From Lentisphaerota bacterium (lineage in GTDB: Bacteria; Verrucomicrobiota; Lentisphaeria; Oligosphaerales; Oligosphaeraceae): a stretch of 41,702 nucleotides of DNA. The translations under genes and the position numbers were made by a program. The stretch is taken from the NCBI GenBank assembly GCA_012799905.1, contig JAAZKI010000567.1, positions 1 to 41,702 on the forward strand. The letters run 5' to 3'. The notes under the pieces are model-generated. The model saw only the letters and a program-made list of their open reading frames with translations, searched no databases and was not told the origin of the DNA. Below, piece by piece: positions 1,661-40,710 of this stretch (its first letter is position 1; each line of letters opens with the position of its first letter).

Positions 1661-1792
1661 ACCACCAAGGACTTTTCAATCCTAGGCTACAAAAGTAAAC
1701 CCCACCTAATCGTCACAGCCATTGATAGCGGCCAATTCCTGCCTGCTTGACGCCCCCCTGCTGAAATACAAGATATATGTCTTCGCTCCCCT

Positions 1793-1978
1793 GTCCACTA
1801 AAGTCCACTTCAGTCCACGTCCACTCTCCACTAAAGTCCACTTCAGTCCACAGTCCATCGTCTACTAACGTCCACTAAAGTCCACTCAAGTCCATTGTCC
1901 ACTGTCCACTAAAATGCCTTACCCGGGAAGCCTGGCTCTGAAGCTTATCGGATTTCCGCGTATCAATGACTGCCCCAT
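1793..1978 (+). repeat. Dispersed GTCCACT-array element, copy A
   Basis: A 121-bp core at 1793-1913 consists of GTCCACT-like units with lengths 10,10,6,7,10,10,7,7,10,10,10,7,7,10. A roughly 65-bp tail follows (ACCCGGGAAGCCTGGCTCTG, then TATCAATGACTGCCCCAT). The same order of unit lengths, including one deviant GTCTACT unit, is found at 32095-32285 (reverse), 38031-38164 and 40410-40590. Stop codons occur in all frames and no gene is seen. Together with the HEPN upstream region and the tRNA promoter, this accounts for the 1562-2079 gap. Confidence 0.85.
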
Positions 1979-2022
1979 GTCGACCAAACTACCATTTTTT
2001 CCTGTTTTTTCACCTATTTTAA

Positions 2023-8058: not shown

Positions 8059-9783
8059 TTACTGTTCAACCATATCAGCAATCTTCGCTCGGAACGCCTC
8101 TGCACTAGTAGCCGGGTAAATGGTGCCTGCAACCATGGCGTCATCATCAATACGGCCAAAGCCGGCATAATTGAAAATCAGGCGGACGTCGACATAATTA
8201 AAGCCGTTCTTGCCGTCAATATCCAACGATTCCACCATATCGGCAATCTTCGCTCGGAACGCCTCTGCACTAGTAGCCGGGTAAATGGTGCCTGCAACCA
8301 TGGCGTCATCATCAATGCGGCCAAAGCCGGCATAATTGAAAATCAGGCGGACATCGACATAATTAAAGCCGTTCTTGCCGTCCACATCCAGATTCGCATC
8401 TCCCTTGAGCTGGAAGGTGACGTCTGGGGTAGCGGTGAACACGTCAGCAGTTTCCTCGCCATCTTCAAGGGCGATGATAGCGAAGCTGACCGTGCCGCCC
8501 TTGGCCTTCAGGCCAGGCTGGAGGGTGACGGTCACGATTTGGTCTTCCTCGGAAAGGATATCCGCAGTATAGGTCGGGGTGACGACGCCGTTTGCTTCAG
8601 TAAAGACGCGGTTAAACTCGACTGGTGCCCGGGCGCCGCTGCCAACCTCGAAGGTAATTTCCCACGGGTAGTCCGCTTCGGCTCCTTTCCAGGCCGGGCC
8701 GGTGAAGACATAGCGGTTCGCCTCGTCAGTCAGGGCATCTGCCACCCCGTCGAGGTCGTATTCCAGCGTGATGGACTTGTAAGCCGACTTGTCATCGTCA
8801 ACATAATCGACTTTCACCTTAGCCGGGTCGCCGTCGATACCAACTCCCTCGCCGCCGACGGTGATAACCGCCAAATTGATTTCAATAATTTTACCGAGTC
8901 TCAATTCGACGGCGCCGGTCGCGCTGGGCGCATTTGCGCCGGCGTCATTGCGGGTCAGGGTATAGTTGATGACGACCGTGTCAAAGCCGTCGATGTCTTC
9001 GGGCAGGGTATAGAGGAGATCGCTGCCGTCAAAAACAACACCCGCCCTGGTGCCGGGGGGGAAGACCTGGTCATTGCCGTTATAGTAATAGACTTGTGCA
9101 TCCCCGGCGGTGAACTCATCCGCGTCAAAGCCGAGGTCAACTTCTTTGTATCCCTCAGCCGCTGCGGCGATGACGTCGTAGATCGGCGCAGGGGTTGCCG
9201 GGGCGGCGGCAGCGCCTGCCGCCAGGTATTGGATGTAGTAGATTCCCTTTGCCAGGCTGTCGCTAGCAGTCGTGCGCAAGTCTGCGACTTTGATTGCGCC
9301 GGCCGCGTCAAGCAATTGGAATGTCCCTTCGGCGGGTGCGCCCCCAACCGCCTCAACGGCCTCCCAGGACAATTCGACCGTATTGGCCACGGTATCTGCA
9401 ATCACCAGCACCCAGGTGGAAGCGTTGGTTGCCGCTGACTTGTAGTCTTCTGACAAACGGTAGTAGGCGTCACCGGTTTTCTTGCTGGTGTCCGGGCTGA
9501 AATAGCCTTGACCGCCTTGGAAATACAAGTAGTTCAAGACGCCTTCGACGGGGATCGTCAAATCGTCAACCACTTGGCGAGTCGGGGCGCCGGGAGGCGC
9601 CGGAAAGTCCAGTTCATCAACTGCGTCGGTAGCCGTTTCTGCGAGGCGACCAAACACGAGCGAGGCTGATTCTGCCTCTCCTACTTTCAAATTATAGGCG
9701 AATGACTGGGCATAGGCGCTGCCCCAGGACATCACCACTGCCGTCAAGGCGGCAAAGAGCATTGAGCTAATTTTTCCCCGCAT
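8059..9783 (-). CDS. Exported protein with two C-terminal dockerin-type repeats
   Basis: A 574-aa protein with a signal peptide (residues 1-25, MRGKISSMLFAALTAVVMSWGSAYA) and a GAGGAG ribosome-binding site. Residues 26-455 are beta-rich and acidic, with no family I can name. Residues 466-477 and 521-532 are identical-type calcium loops, D-x-D-G-K-N-G-F-N-Y-V-D, each followed by VRLIFNYAGFGRIDDD. This matches the 12-residue EF-hand-like loop and helix of type I dockerins. Classical dockerins have two roughly 22-residue repeats close together; here the repeat unit is 55 residues, nearly identical in both copies, and the second ends the protein. Dockerins bind cohesins to build extracellular complexes. 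The next gene in the operon has a cohesin-like N-terminus, so the two may pair. Similar dockerin-like tails are also used for surface retention in non-cellulosomal bacteria. Confidence 0.75.
   Translation of the reverse strand: MRGKISSMLFAALTAVVMSWGSAYAQSFAYNLKVGEAESASLVFGRLAETATDAVDELDFPAPPGAPTRQVVDDLTIPVEGVLNYLYFQGGQGYFSPDTSKKTGDAYYRLSEDYKSAATNASTWVLVIADTVANTVELSWEAVEAVGGAPAEGTFQLLDAAGAIKVADLRTTASDSLAKGIYYIQYLAAGAAAAPATPAPIYDVIAAAAEGYKEVDLGFDADEFTAGDAQVYYYNGNDQVFPPGTRAGVVFDGSDLLYTLPEDIDGFDTVVINYTLTRNDAGANAPSATGAVELRLGKIIEINLAVITVGGEGVGIDGDPAKVKVDYVDDDKSAYKSITLEYDLDGVADALTDEANRYVFTGPAWKGAEADYPWEITFEVGSGARAPVEFNRVFTEANGVVTPTYTADILSEEDQIVTVTLQPGLKAKGGTVSFAIIALEDGEETADVFTATPDVTFQLKGDANLDVDGKNGFNYVDVRLIFNYAGFGRIDDDAMVAGTIYPATSAEAFRAKIADMVESLDIDGKNGFNYVDVRLIFNYAGFGRIDDDAMVAGTIYPATSAEAFRAKIADMVEQ
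8067..8396 (-). repeat. 165-bp tandem duplication encoding the dockerin-type repeats
   Basis: Two head-to-tail 165-bp (55-codon) units fill the 3' end of the 574-aa gene. I count about four or five base differences, for example CAG/CGG, AATACGG/AATGCGG, GACGTCG/GACATCG and the codons next to the DxDG loop. The near identity, including third codon positions, points to recent duplication or gene conversion. Confidence 0.85.
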
Positions 9784-11360: not shown

Positions 11361-11405
11361 CACTGGACGGAGGCGGGCACAGCATGATAGGCGCACCGGG
11401 GGCGA

Positions 11406-11476
11406 GCGCCTACCTGCGCAGGCGCCCGTCCACAACGTCCACCGCGTCCACTATGTCCACAAACACCCGTCGGCAA
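11406..11476. repeat. 71-bp direct repeat, copy 1
   Basis: This stretch is identical over 71 bp to 14315-14385. It begins with a hairpin (GCGCCT...AGGCGC), continues with 9-nt GTCCACNNN units and ends CACCCGTCGGCAA. The two copies bracket the oxidoreductase and phosphohexomutase genes in the same orientation. Confidence 0.95.
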
Positions 11477-11502: not shown

Positions 11503-12567
11503 TTAGTCTTCCAGGTCGGCCATGGTGTGGTTCGACTCTTTCAGGATGTCGGCGCAGAGGATTTTCTTGCCCTTCTGGTGCCCGGAGCGGAGCATCGCCT
11601 CGGTCAGCAGGGCGACGCGGCTGCCGAAAATAAACGGCACGCGGTTGATTCTGACCTTTTTGCGCAGCAGCTTGACGAAGTTGTCCACCGGTGAGAGCGG
11701 GTATCCGGCCGGGCGTGACAGCGACACTTCGGTGTACTCATTGGCTTCCTGGTCAAACAGGATGACCTGATCGCCACGGAAGAAGATGCTGCCCTTGGTG
11801 CCGCAAATGCGGACATCGTCCACAAAGCCGCCAGGAATATCGCTGAGAATGACGACGCGGCCAGTGACGCCGCCAGTCAATTCGACGTTGAAAGAGCCGT
11901 TGTATTCGACTTTAAGTTTCTTGCCGCGGTAGATTGAGTCGATATACCCTTCCGCGCTGACAGGCAGCAGGCCGGTCATCCACAGGAGGATATCCTGGTA
12001 ATGGCTGCCGGAGTCGTTGATCTGGCCGCCGCCGGAGAATTCCGGTTCACCGCGCCAGGTCCGTCCGCACCAGTCTTGAGCCATGTACACGAAAAAGTTA
12101 GTCACCTCGCCGATAGCGCCCTTAGCGATCAGTTCCCGCGCCTTCATGAATTTCAATTCATAGTGGCGCTGATAGGTGAGGAGGGCGGTGACTCCTTTTT
12201 CCTTGGCCAGTTTGGTGACTTCGAGGGCATTGGCGGCGCCGCAGACCATAGGTTTCTCAATCAGGACATTCCGGCCCTTCTGGAGGGCGTACTTGAGGTG
12301 GTCGTAATGCGGTATGTGCGGAGTGAAGATGCCGACAGCGTCAAGTTCGTTCTCATCAATCATACGCTTGTAGTCGTTGACGCCGGTGTAGCGGGCGAAG
12401 GTGTTGCTGCCGATGACATTAGCCAAGTTGTCCAGGCGGGGCGGGTCAATATCAACCGCTGCCACCAGTTCCACGCCGAGCTCGTGCGACACCATCTGCT
12501 TGATGCGGTGCGTGCCCATGTTGCCGCAGCCAATCGCCCCAAAACGAATTTTCGCCTGTTTCGCCAT
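11503..12567 (-). CDS. Gfo/Idh/MocA-family NAD(P)-dependent oxidoreductase
   Basis: A 354-aa protein, the normal length for the family. Residues 6-40 are the Rossmann nucleotide-binding unit (IRFGAIGCGNMGTH, then VAAVDIDP). EKP at 104-106 holds the family's catalytic or substrate-positioning lysine. The C-terminal alpha/beta substrate domain includes GGGQINDSGSHYQDILLW (about 179-196), with D185 and H189 in the usual active-site positions. Members oxidise or reduce sugars, inositols or sugar derivatives; the substrate cannot be told from sequence. It is divergent from the phosphohexomutase (168 bp between starts), and the pair sits between two exact 71-bp repeats. No signal peptide is present, so it is cytoplasmic. 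The start has a weak GGGAGAAGG-type site. Confidence 0.9.
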   Translation of the reverse strand: MAKQAKIRFGAIGCGNMGTHRIKQMVSHELGVELVAAVDIDPPRLDNLANVIGSNTFARYTGVNDYKRMIDENELDAVGIFTPHIPHYDHLKYALQKGRNVLIEKPMVCGAANALEVTKLAKEKGVTALLTYQRHYELKFMKARELIAKGAIGEVTNFFVYMAQDWCGRTWRGEPEFSGGGQINDSGSHYQDILLWMTGLLPVSAEGYIDSIYRGKKLKVEYNGSFNVELTGGVTGRVVILSDIPGGFVDDVRICGTKGSIFFRGDQVILFDQEANEYTEVSLSRPAGYPLSPVDNFVKLLRKKVRINRVPFIFGSRVALLTEAMLRSGHQKGKKILCADILKESNHTMADLED

Positions 12568-12735
12568 GTTAGCCTTCTCCCTTAATTTCAGCGCCGCCTG
12601 CCGGGTGTCGGCGCCGAGACAATATTTTCCATCCCGGGCAGGAAATGAATCAACAGATATATTATGATAATCAGAAACGCCGGCATTGCCAACGACGAAG
12701 ATACTTTTTCTTTATATAAGTTAAGGGACACGGCC

Positions 12736-14274
12736 ATGACGACAACGGTTGACATTCGGAAAATTTTCAAGCGGGACGACATACGCGGACTCTATCCGGA
12801 AGAACTCAACGGCGACACCGTATTTCTGGCGGGCCGTGCCATGGCGGAACGGCTGTCAGCCCTGCGCAAATCCAATCCACGCATAGTGGTGGGTTATGAC
12901 GCTCGCTTGACCTCGCCTGAATTGCGCCTGGCCTTCTGCCGCGGAGTGACGGCGGGCGGCGGCGAGGCCGAAGACCTGGGCCTAGTCTCGACGGAACATG
13001 TGTATTACGCCTGCGGCCAGCACCCGGAGCGCTATGCCGGCGGCGCTATGATCACAGCTTCGCACAATCCAGCCGCCTATAACGGCATCAAAATGGTCCA
13101 CGCCGGCGCCGCCCCCTTCTCCAGCGCTGACTTGAGCTGGCTGCAACAGCGCATGATAGAACTGCTTACACCGGCAACCAGCCGCGACCTGAAAAATGAA
13201 TTTGCAGACTACTTAGTCCGCCTGGCCGGCTTTGACGCCTGGCCAGACCGAGACCAGCCAGACTTTACAATCGTGGCTGCTGCCGGCCATGGCGTCGGCG
13301 GCGTCGCCTTCCAGCCGATCGCTGACCGCCTGGCAGCCAAAGGCCTGGAGGTCGTCTGGACAGACCCAGAGCCAGACGGGCGCTTCCCGCATGGCGTGCC
13401 AAACCCGCTGCTGTCAGACTTCATGGAACGCCTGGGACGGACAGTGGTCGCAAACAATGCTGACCTCGGCATTGGCTTTGACGGTGACGCTGACCGAGCC
13501 GGATTCACGGACAACGCCGGCCAGGCGATTGCAGGCTCCTTTGTGCTGGCTCTGGCAGCCAAGGCCAAACTGGCCCGGCACCCACGAAAACAAGGCCAGA
13601 AGCCGCTCATTTTCCGTAACTTGTGCTGTTCACAGCTCTTGCTGGATTTGTACGACAACGACGACACCGAGGTGATGGACACGCCAGTGGGACACGGCAA
13701 AATCAAACTGCTGATGCGACACGAAGCCTATCGCGATCGAATCGTGGTTGCCGGCGAACATTCCGGCCACTTCTTCTACCCCGAATTCCATTTCGTCGAC
13801 AGCGGTATGCTGACCAGCCTATACCTGCTGATGTTAGCCTGGGAAATGAAACGGCGCGGGGTGAGCCTCACGGAAGAACTGACATCGTGGCGACAGCGCT
13901 ACTGCTGGAGCGGCGAAGTGAACTTCAATTTAAGTTCGCCAGAAGAAGTCCTGCCGGTGCTGCTACGTACCTGGAAGGAAAACCAGGCCCTGGCCACGGC
14001 CCGATATGAAGTGCGAACCGACCCGGCTCTGGGCCTGGACCGCGTCTTCCTGGGCGAAGGCGACTATTGTCCAGCCAAACTGGCTGCGCCTGACCTGAAA
14101 GTGGTGTGCGACCGAACCGACAGCGGCTGGTGGTTCGTGCTCAGGCCCTCCGGCAATGAGCCCAAACTGCGGCTGAATGTGGAAGCCTGGGGCGATGATG
14201 CTGTCAACGCATGCCGACGTGAAACAGAGCGGCTGGCCACAGCTCTCCGTCAAGCTGGCGCAAAGGATGCTTGA
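12736..14274 (+). CDS. Phosphomannomutase/phosphoglucomutase (alpha-D-phosphohexomutase)
   Basis: A 512-aa protein that interconverts hexose 6-phosphate and hexose 1-phosphate to feed nucleotide-sugar and glycan synthesis. The start is at ATG 12736 (AAGGGA box 7 bp upstream). The phosphoserine loop is TASHNP with Ser109. The magnesium loop is GFDGDADRAG (D249, D251, D253). The sugar-binding loop is GEHSGHFFY. The phosphate-binding loop near the C-terminus reads RPSGNEPKLR, where most members have Thr in place of Asn. All four domains are present, so it should be active. Which of mannose or glucose it prefers is not clear. Its neighbour, an NAD-dependent sugar oxidoreductase, is divergent. Confidence 0.92.
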   Translation: MTTTVDIRKIFKRDDIRGLYPEELNGDTVFLAGRAMAERLSALRKSNPRIVVGYDARLTSPELRLAFCRGVTAGGGEAEDLGLVSTEHVYYACGQHPERYAGGAMITASHNPAAYNGIKMVHAGAAPFSSADLSWLQQRMIELLTPATSRDLKNEFADYLVRLAGFDAWPDRDQPDFTIVAAAGHGVGGVAFQPIADRLAAKGLEVVWTDPEPDGRFPHGVPNPLLSDFMERLGRTVVANNADLGIGFDGDADRAGFTDNAGQAIAGSFVLALAAKAKLARHPRKQGQKPLIFRNLCCSQLLLDLYDNDDTEVMDTPVGHGKIKLLMRHEAYRDRIVVAGEHSGHFFYPEFHFVDSGMLTSLYLLMLAWEMKRRGVSLTEELTSWRQRYCWSGEVNFNLSSPEEVLPVLLRTWKENQALATARYEVRTDPALGLDRVFLGEGDYCPAKLAAPDLKVVCDRTDSGWWFVLRPSGNEPKLRLNVEAWGDDAVNACRRETERLATALRQAGAKDA

Positions 14275-14422
14275 GGGGCTTTTTCTAGGGGCGAGGGGCT
14301 TTCTTGAGGGGCGGGCGCCTACCTGCGCAGGCGCCCGTCCACAACGTCCACCGCGTCCACTATGTCCACAAACACCCGTCGGCAAACTGAAGTTTGAACT
14401 ACCTGCGACTCCTGTCCACAAC
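14275..14422. repeat. Heptamer debris and 71-bp direct repeat, copy 2
   Basis: The 71-bp repeat at 14315-14385 is identical to 11406-11476. It is preceded by degenerate GGGGCGA/GAGGGGC units (14270-14314) and followed by another GTCCACAAC unit. The region separates the convergent phosphohexomutase and DUF4091 genes. No standard terminator hairpin with a U-tract is seen. Confidence 0.9.
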
Positions 14423-19920: not shown

Positions 19921-19969
19921 AAAAAAAATGCCCTGCTGGTCGCAGCTAATAGCCGCGACCAGCAGGGCA
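19921..19969 (-). terminator. Rho-independent terminator of the GH42-like gene
   Basis: The stem TGCCCTGCTGGTCGC (19929-19943) / GCGACCAGCAGGGCA (19955-19969) is a perfect 15-bp pair with an 11-nt loop. On the minus strand it is followed by eight U. It lies 50 bp after the stop codon of the gene ending at 20020. Confidence 0.9.
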
Positions 19970-25493: not shown

Positions 25494-25672
25494 TTAGGGG
25501 CGAGGGGCGAGGGGCGAGGCGAGGGGCGAGGGGCGAGGGGCGAGGGGCGAGGGGCGAGAGGCGAGGGGCGGAATGCGGAATGTTGAATGCTGAATGCTGA
25601 ATGCTGAATGCTGAATGCGGAGGCGCATTTCATAATTCATAATTCATAATTCATTAGCGGCGAGGGGCGAGC
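25494..25672 (+). repeat. Composite heptamer repeat (GGGGCGA, GAATGCT, CATAATT arrays)
   Basis: It begins 1 bp after the FAD oxidoreductase stop codon. It contains about nine GGGGCGA units (25497-25570), then five GAATGCT-type units (25571-25618), a GGAGGCGCATTTCA joint (25619-25632), three TAATTCA units, TTAG and a further GGCGAGGGGCGAG. The same joint and order appear in reverse at 32309-32398. It is non-coding. Confidence 0.9.
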
Positions 25673-32094: not shown

Positions 32095-32398
32095 CGTAAT
32101 GGGGTCAGTGATTGATATTCGGAGTCCCAGTGAGTTTCAGAGCCAGGCACCCCGGGTAAGACACTTTAGTGGACAGTGGACAATGGACGCTAGTGGACTT
32201 TAATGGACGTTAGTAGACGATGGACTGTGGACTGAAGTGGACTTTAGTGGGGAGTGGACGTGGACGCAAATGGACTTTAGTGGACGAACGTAGTCCAAGT
32301 TCATTCTCGCCCCTCGCCCCTAATGAATTGTGAATTATGAATTATGAATTGTGAAATGCGCCTCAGCATTCGGTATTCGGCATTCAGCATTCAGAATG
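32095..32398 (-). repeat. Composite heptamer element, copy B (most complete)
   Basis: On the minus strand from 32398 down: GAATGCT-type units, the GAGGCGCATTTCA joint, CATAATT/CACAATT units, TTAG, GGGGCGA units, an AATGAACTTGGACTACG joint, then the GTCCACT array (32285-32165) with unit lengths 10,10,6,7,10,10,7,7,10,10,10,7,7,10, then the CCCGGGGTGCCTGGCTCTGA tail and ATCAATCACTGACCCCAT. This accounts for most of the 31981-32390 gap. Its left end supplies the stop codon of the gene ending at 32391. Confidence 0.9.
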
Positions 32399-33467
32399 TA
32401 TTTCGGTGAATTCGTGCGGATTGGACGCGTGTGCGCGGTTCATGGTCTTCGGCAGGCCAGCCCAGGGTGATGATGGCGACTGGGATAATCGATTCCGGCA
32501 GGTTTAGGGCTTGGCGTAGCAAAGCGATGCGTTCTGGGCGTGGATGGATGCCGAGCCAGCAAGCGCCCAGGCCCAGCGCAGTTGCCGCCAGCAGGATATT
32601 CTGAGTGGCAGCGGCGCAGTCCACCAGTAGGAAGGATTCAGATTGGGCATTGGCTTTTTGCAGATCGCCGCAGACGACGATGGCGGTGGGGGCGTCAGCG
32701 AGAAAGGGGCCGTTCGGCAGCTTGGATGCTAGATCGGCCCGCAGGGCGTCGTCCGCCAGGATGACAAAATGCCACGGGTCGCAGGCTCGGGCTGAGGGCG
32801 CCGCCATGCCGGCTTGCAGCAGGTCAGAGACCATCGCGTCCGCCACTGGACGGAGCTGGTAGCGCCGCACGCTGCGCCGTCGGAAGATAAAGTCCAGGCG
32901 TGGATTGAGGCCGGTCGCGCTGGCTGCTGCCGGGCTGTCGCTGCGAACCTGGTCTGGCCGGGCCTCGCGAATGCGGCGGACGGTGGCAGTGGTGGAGCAG
33001 CCGTCAACCAGGGGAATGAACACAAAGCGGGCGCCAGCCTGCTTGAGGATGGCGTGTTCTTCGCGGTCAAGGCTGTCTTCCGTGTAATCGCCGCCCTTGA
33101 CATAGACGTCAGGCGGGATGGCCGTGAATACGTCAACCGGCTTGGGGCCGTTGAAGATGACGACGGCGCTGACGCAGGCCAGGCTGGCGACTAGGTAGGC
33201 GCGGTCGTTTTCGTTGACGAGCGGCCGGTCCGGGCCTTTGCTGGCTTGCACCGAGGCGTCGGAATTGATGGCTACGAGGAGCGCGTCAGCTTGTTGGGCT
33301 GCCTGCCACAGGTAGGTCGCGTGGCCTCGATGGAGGAGGTCGAAAGCGCCATTGGTGACGGCGAGCGACTTTCCCGCGGCCCGGAGCTGGGCATGCCAGG
33401 CTTGGGCCTGCGCTAAGGTGAGAATCTTGCGGGCGGGATCGGATTCGTGGATTGGGCTGGTTGTCAT
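32391..33467 (-). CDS. Fusion: HldE-C/RfaE2-like nucleotidyltransferase + nitroreductase
   Basis: A 358-aa protein. Residues about 15-170 match the ADP-heptose synthase nucleotidyltransferase domain (cytidylyltransferase-like fold): SLAVTNGAFDLLHRGHATYL with the HxGH motif at 46-49, LLVAINSDASVQASKG, RPLVNENDRAYLVASL, VYVKGGDY and DGCSTTATVRRIRE. This domain adenylates heptose 1-phosphate for LPS core synthesis. Residues about 190-358 are a nitroreductase-like FMN domain: FIFRRRSVRRY, AGMAAPSARACDPWHFVIL, LVDCAAATQNILLAATALGLGACW. The two activities are not known to belong to one pathway, so the fusion is unusual. It is last in an operon with prmC and the acyltransferase fusion, 43 bp after the latter. 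The GAGGT box before ATG 33467 is good. The final codons and the TGA lie in the heptamer repeat. Confidence 0.88.
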   Translation of the reverse strand: MTTSPIHESDPARKILTLAQAQAWHAQLRAAGKSLAVTNGAFDLLHRGHATYLWQAAQQADALLVAINSDASVQASKGPDRPLVNENDRAYLVASLACVSAVVIFNGPKPVDVFTAIPPDVYVKGGDYTEDSLDREEHAILKQAGARFVFIPLVDGCSTTATVRRIREARPDQVRSDSPAAASATGLNPRLDFIFRRRSVRRYQLRPVADAMVSDLLQAGMAAPSARACDPWHFVILADDALRADLASKLPNGPFLADAPTAIVVCGDLQKANAQSESFLLVDCAAATQNILLAATALGLGACWLGIHPRPERIALLRQALNLPESIIPVAIITLGWPAEDHEPRTRVQSARIHRNTF

Positions 33468-38030: not shown

Positions 38031-38164
38031 GTCCATTAAAGTCCACTTCAGTCCACGTCCACTCTCCACTAATGTCCATTAATGTCCACAGTCCATCGTC
38101 TACTAACGTCAATTAAAGTCCACTAAAGTCCATTGTCCATTGTCCACTAACATGCCTTGCCCGA
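38031..38164 (+). repeat. Dispersed GTCCACT-array element, copy C
   Basis: A 121-bp array (38031-38151) has exactly the same unit-length series as copies A and B, including the GTCTACT unit. The tail is cut short after TGCCTTGCCCG, 11 bp before the stop codon of the next gene. The left flank (TGTCTTCGCCTCACTCACT) resembles that of copy A. Confidence 0.85.
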
Positions 38165-38174
38165 AGAGCTTTCG

Positions 38175-40229: not shown

Positions 40230-40344
40230 GGTGCGAAGCCAGGAGCAGGTGGAGGGTAGGCATCGGCAAGAATACGGTTAATACCATAATGCCAAATCAA
40301 CGAACGTCCACTGTCAAGCAGCCGTGAATGGGCACCAATTGATA
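40230..40344. other. mreC upstream region
   Basis: No gene is seen. On the minus strand there is a consensus TTGACA at 40317-40312, but I see no convincing -10 at the right distance. A single GTCCACT unit lies at 40304-40310. Confidence 0.3.
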
Positions 40345-40611
40345 TTAGGGGCGAGGGGCGAGGGGCGAGGGGCGAGAACGAGCTTGGGCTACGCTGTCCG
40401 CCATGTCCACCATGTCCACTTCAGTCCACGTCCACTTACCACAAATGTCCACTTCTGTCCACAGTCCATCGTCTACTTGCGTCCACAAAAGTCCACTATA
40501 GTCCATTGTCCACTGTCCATTAAAGCGCTTTATCCGGGGCGCTTGGCGCCGCAGCTTGCCGGAAATCCAAGTATCAATCAGTCATCGATTACAAGTCCAC
40601 TGTCCACTCCC
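40345..40611 (+). repeat. Composite heptamer element, copy D
   Basis: ATTAG followed by about four GGGGCGA units, an AACGAGCTTGGGCTACG joint shared with copy B, then the GTCCACT array. The first unit is 9 nt here; the rest follow the 10,6,7,10,10,7,7,10,10,10,7,7,10 series. The tail is TATCCGGGGCGCTTGGCGCC and TATCAATCAGTCAT. Two further GTCCACT units lie at 40595-40608. It lies between mreC and serC. Confidence 0.88.
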
Positions 40612-40710
40612 CGCGTTTATTTTTCGGATAGTTGGGTTATATTATTTTTCCATTGTTTTTTTTGTTTGACTGTTTTATTTATTTCCATGTTATTGTAAGG
40701 AGTGTTTTTG

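What the first reader, a model, noticed from the sequence alone, without database searches (positions are those of the whole stretch)
1793..1978. Four copies of a GTCCACT array share the same irregular unit-length code
Copies at 1793-1978, 32095-32285 (reverse), 38031-38164 and 40400-40590 look like simple heptamer repeats. All four, however, follow the series 10,10,6,7,10,10,7,7,10,10,10,7,7,10 (first unit 9 in copy D) and keep the same deviant units (GTCCATC, GTCTACT, GTCCATT) at the same places. Three also share a tail (CCCGGG...GCCTGG...ATCAATCA). Independent slippage cannot give this. It is one dispersed non-coding element of about 190 bp, always between genes, with no transposase in sight.
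Basis: seen in the sequence. Interest (0 to 1): 0.78.

Follow-up and report, generated by a model that had tools for sequence, protein, structure and literature searches.

The report
IS66-driven MITE carrying a frozen minisatellite
The four odd GTCCACT arrays are copies of one small 'hitch-hiking' transposon, present at least 113 times between the genes of this Lentisphaerae-group bacterium and spread by a known type of jumping-gene enzyme (IS66); it is unusual because a short tandem-repeat block has kept the same irregular spacing and nearly unchanged words in copy after copy.

Summary
All four copies share the irregular unit series. Of 141 array copies collected from this genome and a same-genus relative, 67 carry the exact series and 104 are within one edit; shuffled orders essentially never come close. 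The genome holds at least 113 copies.

The arrays are the right-hand part of a miniature transposon (MITE), not a free-standing 190-bp element. Its right end is razor sharp (...TATCAATCRGTGACCGATTAC), and about a quarter of full copies keep an inverted left end (GTAATCGGTCA...TGATA). Ten of 50 two-ended elements have an 8-bp target duplication at 7 or 8 of 8 bases (chance: 0.02 elements), and two have clean empty sites in the relative. The sister genome (Lentisphaerae bacterium ADurb.Bin082) holds an intact 2,566-bp IS66-family element with the identical 21-bp ends and its own 8-bp duplication. So a transposase does exist.

MITEs with internal minisatellites are known (BrickBuilt in Porphyromonas), so this is a new variant. 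The surprising residue is that GTCCA words hardly change between orthologous copies (3%) while the spacers (28%) and the tail (13%) do. This suggests constraint on the words, by selection or copy-to-copy correction. The cause and the binding partner are unknown.

The parts
1706..1727 (+). Copy A, degenerate left terminal inverted repeat CTAATCGTCACAGCCATTGATA (consensus GTAATCGGTCAGCCATTGATA)
   Evidence: 3 substitutions, 1 insertion
1728..1792 (+). Copy A, 5' module between left end and array (ends ...GTCTTCGCTCCCCT)
   Evidence: same module type upstream of other copies
1793..1913 (+). Copy A, coded GTCCACT array (14 units)
1914..1979 (+). Copy A, tail ending in degenerate right terminal inverted repeat (1961-1979)
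32165..32285 (-). Copy B, coded array; lies at a synteny breakpoint between rpsL and the gene at 32391-33467
32096..32164 (-). Copy B, tail with intact right terminal inverted repeat TATCAATCACTGACCCCATTAC (32096-32117)
38031..38151 (+). Copy C, coded array (no recognisable left end; absent at the same site in the sister genome)
38152..38171 (+). Copy C, truncated tail
40324..40344 (+). Copy D, left terminal inverted repeat GTGAATGGGCACCAATTGATA
40345..40405 (+). Copy D, 5' module: (GGGGCGA)n and AACGAGCTTGGGCTACG
40406..40525 (+). Copy D, coded array (first unit 9); present at the same site in the sister genome
40526..40592 (+). Copy D, tail with right terminal inverted repeat TATCAATCAGTCATCGATTAC (40572-40592)

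Best explanation
The arrays belong to a MITE of the IS66 type. Layout: left end GTAATCGGTCA-N4-TGATA, an interchangeable 5' module, a 121-bp minisatellite with 14 ordered GTCCA-words spaced 6/7/10 bp, and a 67-bp tail ending ...TATCAATCRGTGACCGATTAC. SHOWN: sharp right boundary; inverted left end in a subset; 8-bp target duplications; empty sites in the relative; an autonomous IS66-family element with identical 21-bp ends and a perfect 8-bp duplication in the same genus. INFERRED: the IS66 transposase, supplied in trans, moved a founder MITE that had captured one GTCCACT minisatellite, so every daughter inherited the founder's unit-length series. Homologous recombination between copies then swapped 5' modules and produced truncated, tandem and array-only forms and rearrangements (as at copy B). 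SHOWN: within copies the words stay almost constant while the spacers change freely, also between orthologous copies. INFERRED, less certain: something preserves the words after insertion, either a word-reading DNA-binding protein or copy-to-copy correction. The confidence given is for the IS66-MITE core.
For: Conservation of 111 tails ends abruptly after ATTAC, falling from about 0.9 bits to about 0.05 within three bases. 10 of 50 two-ended elements have TSDs matching at 7 or 8 of 8 bases, against 0.04% in mispaired controls, e.g. ATGCAAAT, CCAGGCAA, TTTTTCCT, GGAAACTT. Two empty sites in the sister genome have a single target copy (ATGCAGAT in L086; GGAAACTT in L175). The autonomous element at L229:2826-5391 is 2,566 bp, has ends GTAATCGGTCACCGATTGATA/TATCAATCGGTGACCGATTAC, TSD TTTTTCGC, a 591-aa PF03050/NF033517 transposase and a 140-aa DUF6788 protein. 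A 49%-identical transposase in another genus of the family has ends GTAATGCCTCACCGATTGATA. GTAA ends and 8-bp duplications are reported for IS66-family elements (PMC12888890; PMC3281130; PMC12898284). Word divergence is 22/730, spacer 72/257, tail 95/722 in 12 syntenic pairs with 88.8% mean flank identity.
Against: Only 22 of 91 full copies have a recognisable left end within 800 bp (random windows 5.6%), so most copies are one-ended, decayed or recombined. The own genome shows no full-length IS66 transposase, only a 28-bit fragment match, although the assembly is in 614 pieces. About 26 copies are array-only, with boundaries at the array rather than at the inverted repeats, and at least one of these is absent in the sister without an obvious target duplication (n=124). 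The word constraint is weaker in the six cleanest orthologous pairs (11/385 against 24/399 in the tail, p=0.04), and strictly private variants are equally frequent in words and tail (4.7 against 5.5 per 1000, p=0.62).
Confidence: 0.85

Rival explanations
1. The coded array is a host-functional binding platform: a sequence-specific protein reads GTCCA words at a fixed irregular 7/10-bp register (for example a nucleoid, insulator or regulatory protein), and the MITE merely distributes it. (This adds to the IS66-MITE reading rather than replacing it.)
For: Words are 97.9% conserved, spacers 71%, tail 82% over 162 copies. Orthologous copies show 3% word against 28% spacer change. Word change does not rise with tail divergence. 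Deviant words are kept at fixed places. Modest co-orientation with tandem genes, 40 against 20, p=0.013.
Against: Singleton variants are as frequent in words as in the tail. No candidate binder was identified. The word is not enriched outside arrays. Many insertions are not shared between the two species.
Confidence: 0.3
2. The words are constant because copies are continually corrected by homologous recombination among more than 100 templates; the array is a passenger with no host role. (Also compatible with the IS66-MITE core.)
For: 5' modules are shuffled among copies, orthologous sites carry exchanged arrays, orthologous spacers diverge faster than the tail (21% against 6%, p=3e-6), and one genome has three tandem copies.
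Against: Correction should homogenise the spacers as well as the words, and out-of-register correction should erase the deviant words, which remain intact in 85-91% of copies.
Confidence: 0.35
3. Independent slippage or local segmental duplication produced look-alike simple heptamer arrays.
For: Simple GTCCACW or GTCCACC heptamer arrays with other orders do exist in relatives.
Against: The shared unit series, shared deviant words, shared tail and a distribution over many contigs of the genome.
Confidence: 0.01
4. A structured non-coding RNA family.
For: Modest co-orientation with neighbouring genes in tandem gaps; short palindromes at the ends.
Against: No consensus fold on either strand for 99 tails; no Rfam match; array words have no complementary partner on the same strand.
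Confidence: 0.03
5. DNA-uptake-type word drive (words maintained by biased uptake and recombination).
For: Word constancy at orthologous sites.
Against: GTCCACT is not over-represented outside arrays: 32 observed, 36 expected in one genome; 140 observed, 117 expected in the other.
Confidence: 0.02

Closest known systems
BrickBuilt and MITEPgRS/MITE464 of Porphyromonas gingivalis (PMC4596501)
   Same: Intergenic MITEs with terminal inverted repeats matching a resident IS and an internal minisatellite; narrow host range; most copies lack one or both ends (only 4 of 19 have both).
   Different: IS5-family ends and about 20 copies there, against IS66-type ends with clean 8-bp duplications and at least 113 copies here. 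Perfect 23- or 41-bp tandem units there, against a fixed irregular series of 6/7/10-bp units with constrained words here.
IS66 family, single-transposase type (compare the ISBst12 group; ISDge4, PMC12898284)
   Same: GTAA ends, 8-bp target duplication, PF03050 transposase in the autonomous relative.
   Different: The window element has no gene. The autonomous relative carries a DUF6788 ORF; no classical TnpA/TnpB ORF pair was seen (only the ORFs of L229 were scanned).
Intergenic bacterial heptamer repeats (TAACTGA in Beggiatoaceae, PMC4679880; GGGAATC/GGGGATT in Xanthomonas and Nostoc, PMC4692102)
   Same: Short 7-mer direct repeats between genes, many loci per genome, patchy distribution.
   Different: Those are uniform heptamers of variable length with no known mover. 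Here one array is frozen in an irregular order and has been multiplied by a transposon.

Membership tests
MITE (non-autonomous TIR transposon) | Terminal inverted repeats | tested here: met
   50 candidate two-ended elements; left end in 22 of 91 full copies against 5.6% background. Many copies are one-ended.
MITE (non-autonomous TIR transposon) | Target-site duplication of fixed length | tested here: met
   8 bp; 10 of 50 elements match at 7-8 of 8 bases, expected 0.02
MITE (non-autonomous TIR transposon) | Empty sites in relatives | tested here: met
   two clean empty sites
MITE (non-autonomous TIR transposon) | No transposase gene, short length, multicopy | tested here: met
   230-410 bp typical; at least 113 copies
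IS66 family derivative | Ends identical to those of an IS66-family autonomous element | tested here: met
   L229:2826-5391, 21-bp identical ends
IS66 family derivative | GTAA termini and 8-bp duplication | tested here: met
   literature
IS66 family derivative | Mobilised by the IS66 transposase | not testable with these tools
   Needs a transposition assay
Minisatellite-bearing MITE (BrickBuilt kind) | Internal tandem repeat between leader and tail with inverted ends | tested here: met
   compared with PMC4596501
Structured RNA family | Conserved secondary structure | tested here: not met
   no consensus fold; no Rfam match
DNA uptake sequence | Word enriched genome-wide outside arrays | tested here: not met

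The most novel reading that the evidence does not exclude
The MITE has distributed a functional, non-coding word array over 100 or more intergenic sites: an as yet unknown host protein reads GTCCA words in a fixed irregular register of 7- and 10-bp steps, so selection keeps the words and their order while the spacers drift at the neutral rate.
Probability: 0.22. Interest if true: 0.72.

Novelty: new variant of a known kind. Interest (0 to 1): 0.46.

Why it matters
It gives a concrete route by which a short tandem repeat of the little-understood bacterial heptamer class can be copied to more than a hundred intergenic sites: capture by an IS66-type MITE. It also offers a natural experiment. Many near-identical arrays with the same word order sit at different sites in two species, so constraint on words against spacers can be measured site by site. 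If the word constraint is real selection, it would point to an unknown sequence-reading protein and a transposon-distributed regulatory or architectural network in a poorly studied phylum.

Tried and rejected
RNA structure: RNAalifold on 99 tails gave nothing on either strand. Rfam gave only the tRNA. DNA-uptake-word idea: the word is not enriched outside arrays. Coding idea: common spacer changes (TTC to TAA and others) create stops, so no frame is conserved. Phage origin: no exact core match in viral contigs. Wider spread: no exact core match in any record outside the sister MAG in the GTDB collection (records of the own genome may be left out); one 80% copy in another genus (G010). The left flank of copy A is not found in either same-genus relative, so its empty site could not be shown. 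An early finding of 98.6% word conservation came from a parser that selects intact words, so it was replaced by an unbiased HMM-position count.

Full report
CHECKING THE OBSERVATION. The four copies are in the window where stated. Parsing word starts gives 10,10,6,7,10,10,7,7,10,10,10,7,7 for A, B and C, and the same series with a first unit of 9 for D. Across 141 array-bearing copies from the own genome (G000) and a same-genus relative (G001), 67 have exactly this series and 104 are within one edit; shuffling the units of each copy never gave fewer than two edits. The deviant words GTCCATC, GTCTACT and GTCCATT are intact at their fixed places in 91%, 85% and 89% of copies. The own genome, 4.37 Mb in 614 contigs, holds at least 113 core matches (64 forward, 49 reverse), with none for the reversed control pattern.

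DISTRIBUTION. G001 is Lentisphaerae bacterium ADurb.Bin082, a metagenome-assembled genome, with a similar number of candidate copies (232 against 209). A third same-genus genome (G002) and one genus of the same family (G022) have GTCCAC arrays with other orders and mostly without the tail. One copy at 80% identity is in another genus (G010). The exact core is found in no other record of the GTDB-based collection (own-genome records may be left out) and in no viral contig. Simple (GTCCACW)n or (GTCCACC)n arrays occur in a few relatives, so uniform arrays exist but are a different thing from the coded family.

WHAT IT IS. Aligned tails stop being conserved exactly after ...TATCAATCRGTGACCGATTAC. 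Upstream of the array in a subset of copies lies an inverted version of this end, GTAATCGGTCA-N4-TGATA. Among 50 non-redundant two-ended elements, ten have 8-bp flanking duplications matching at 7 or 8 positions; mispaired flanks reach 7 in 0.04% of cases. Some of these elements lack the array altogether (for example 124-bp elements in G002), so the array is not needed for movement. Two insertions have empty sites in G001 with one copy of the target: GGAAACTT and ATGCAGAT. A genome-wide search for the end sequence in G001 found two perfect copies in inverted orientation 2.5 kb apart. They bound L229:2826-5391, 2,566 bp, flanked by TTTTTCGC on both sides. It encodes a 591-aa IS66-family transposase (PF03050, 8e-24; NF033517 above its cut-off) and a 140-aa DUF6788 protein, with only one GTCCA word inside. 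A 49%-identical transposase in another genus of the family also lies between related ends (GTAATGCCTCACCGATTGATA). GTAA ends and 8-bp duplications are on record for IS66-family members (PMC12888890, PMC3281130, PMC12898284). The window copies are therefore MITEs, or remnants of them: A spans 1706-1979 and D spans 40324-40592 with degenerate left ends, B keeps only the right end, and C has lost both ends.

HOW COPIES CHANGE. The 5' halves are interchangeable. Of 92 full copies, 40 have an ACACGTGTC module, 34 a longer module with AAGCATGGTTAAGCGCCTACGGCGC, and 23 have (GGGGCGA)n. About 26 copies are array-only, and one locus of G001 has three tandem copies with a 233-bp period. Copy D is shared with G001 at the same site upstream of serC. 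At the site of copy C, G001 has different repeats. Copy B sits exactly where synteny breaks: in G001 rpoC lies directly upstream of rpsL. These facts fit recombination between copies, which is an inference. Gene names here (rpoC, rpsL, serC) are read from the translated sequence and were not tested against a family library.

WORDS AND SPACERS. At model positions, over 162 copies, the most frequent base averages 97.9% in words, 71% in spacers and 82% in the tail. In 12 syntenic pairs between G000 and G001, words differ at 22/730 positions, spacers at 72/257 and the tail at 95/722, with 88.8% mean flank identity. In the six pairs with the least diverged tails the figures are 11/385, 29/138 and 24/399; word against tail is then only p=0.04. 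Word change does not increase with tail divergence. On the other side, strictly private variants are as common in words as in the tail. The pattern is shown; whether selection or inter-copy correction causes it is open. The word is not enriched outside arrays, which argues against an uptake-sequence role, and there is no consensus RNA fold.

CONTEXT. 124 of 130 copies are intergenic, while 88% of random positions lie in ORFs. In tandem gene gaps 40 copies point with the genes and 20 against (p=0.013, one of several comparisons made).

COMPARISON WITH THE KNOWN. The nearest precedent is BrickBuilt of Porphyromonas gingivalis, an intergenic MITE with an internal 23-bp minisatellite and IS5-type ends, also mostly one-ended (PMC4596501). 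Bacterial heptamer arrays with no known mover are described in Beggiatoaceae, Xanthomonas and Nostoc (PMC4679880, PMC4692102). Here the mover is of the IS66 type, the copy number is higher, and the repeat is an irregular frozen series rather than a uniform tandem array. I file it as a new variant of a known kind.

LIMITS. Both main genomes are drafts (the sister is metagenome-assembled; the own genome is in 614 contigs). The sample of copies is large but not the whole genome. The autonomous element was seen only in the sister genome. Most copies lack a recognisable left end. No function or mobilisation has been measured.

Noticed in passing
window 40324-40698 (+): An open frame of 124 aa reads straight through MITE copy D; such frames could be annotated as hypothetical proteins and are probably spurious.
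   Followed up: no
window 25496-25671, 32306-32397, 40347-40376: Other heptamer arrays, (GGGGCGA)n, (GAATGCT)n and (TTCATAA)n, in the same order in two places (91-93% inverted match); they also form interchangeable 5' modules of the MITE.
   Followed up: partly
window 11399-11476 and 14308-14385: A 78-bp repeat, 99% identical, with 9-bp GTCCAC-containing units, flanking the genes at 11503-14274.
   Followed up: no
window 8065-8390: A 165-bp tandem duplication (96%) at the 3' end of the ORF at 8059-9783, doubling a GKNGFNYVDVRLIFNYAGFGRIDDDAM segment that looks dockerin-like.
   Followed up: no
window 32096-32300: The rpoC-rpsL linkage seen in the sister genome is broken exactly at MITE copy B, suggesting recombination between copies.
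   Followed up: partly
L229:331-2804: A second IS66-type element (transposase 39% identical) beside the first in the sister genome, with end variant GTAATGCGTCAGTGAAGCTGGG; some MITE copies have the matching GACGCATTAC variant at the right end.
   Followed up: partly
L102:7356-7997: Three MITE copies in tandem with a 233-bp period in the sister genome.
   Followed up: no
window 19929-19969: Inverted repeat with 20-bp arms, 95% complementary, and 1-nt gap between genes; not examined.
   Followed up: no
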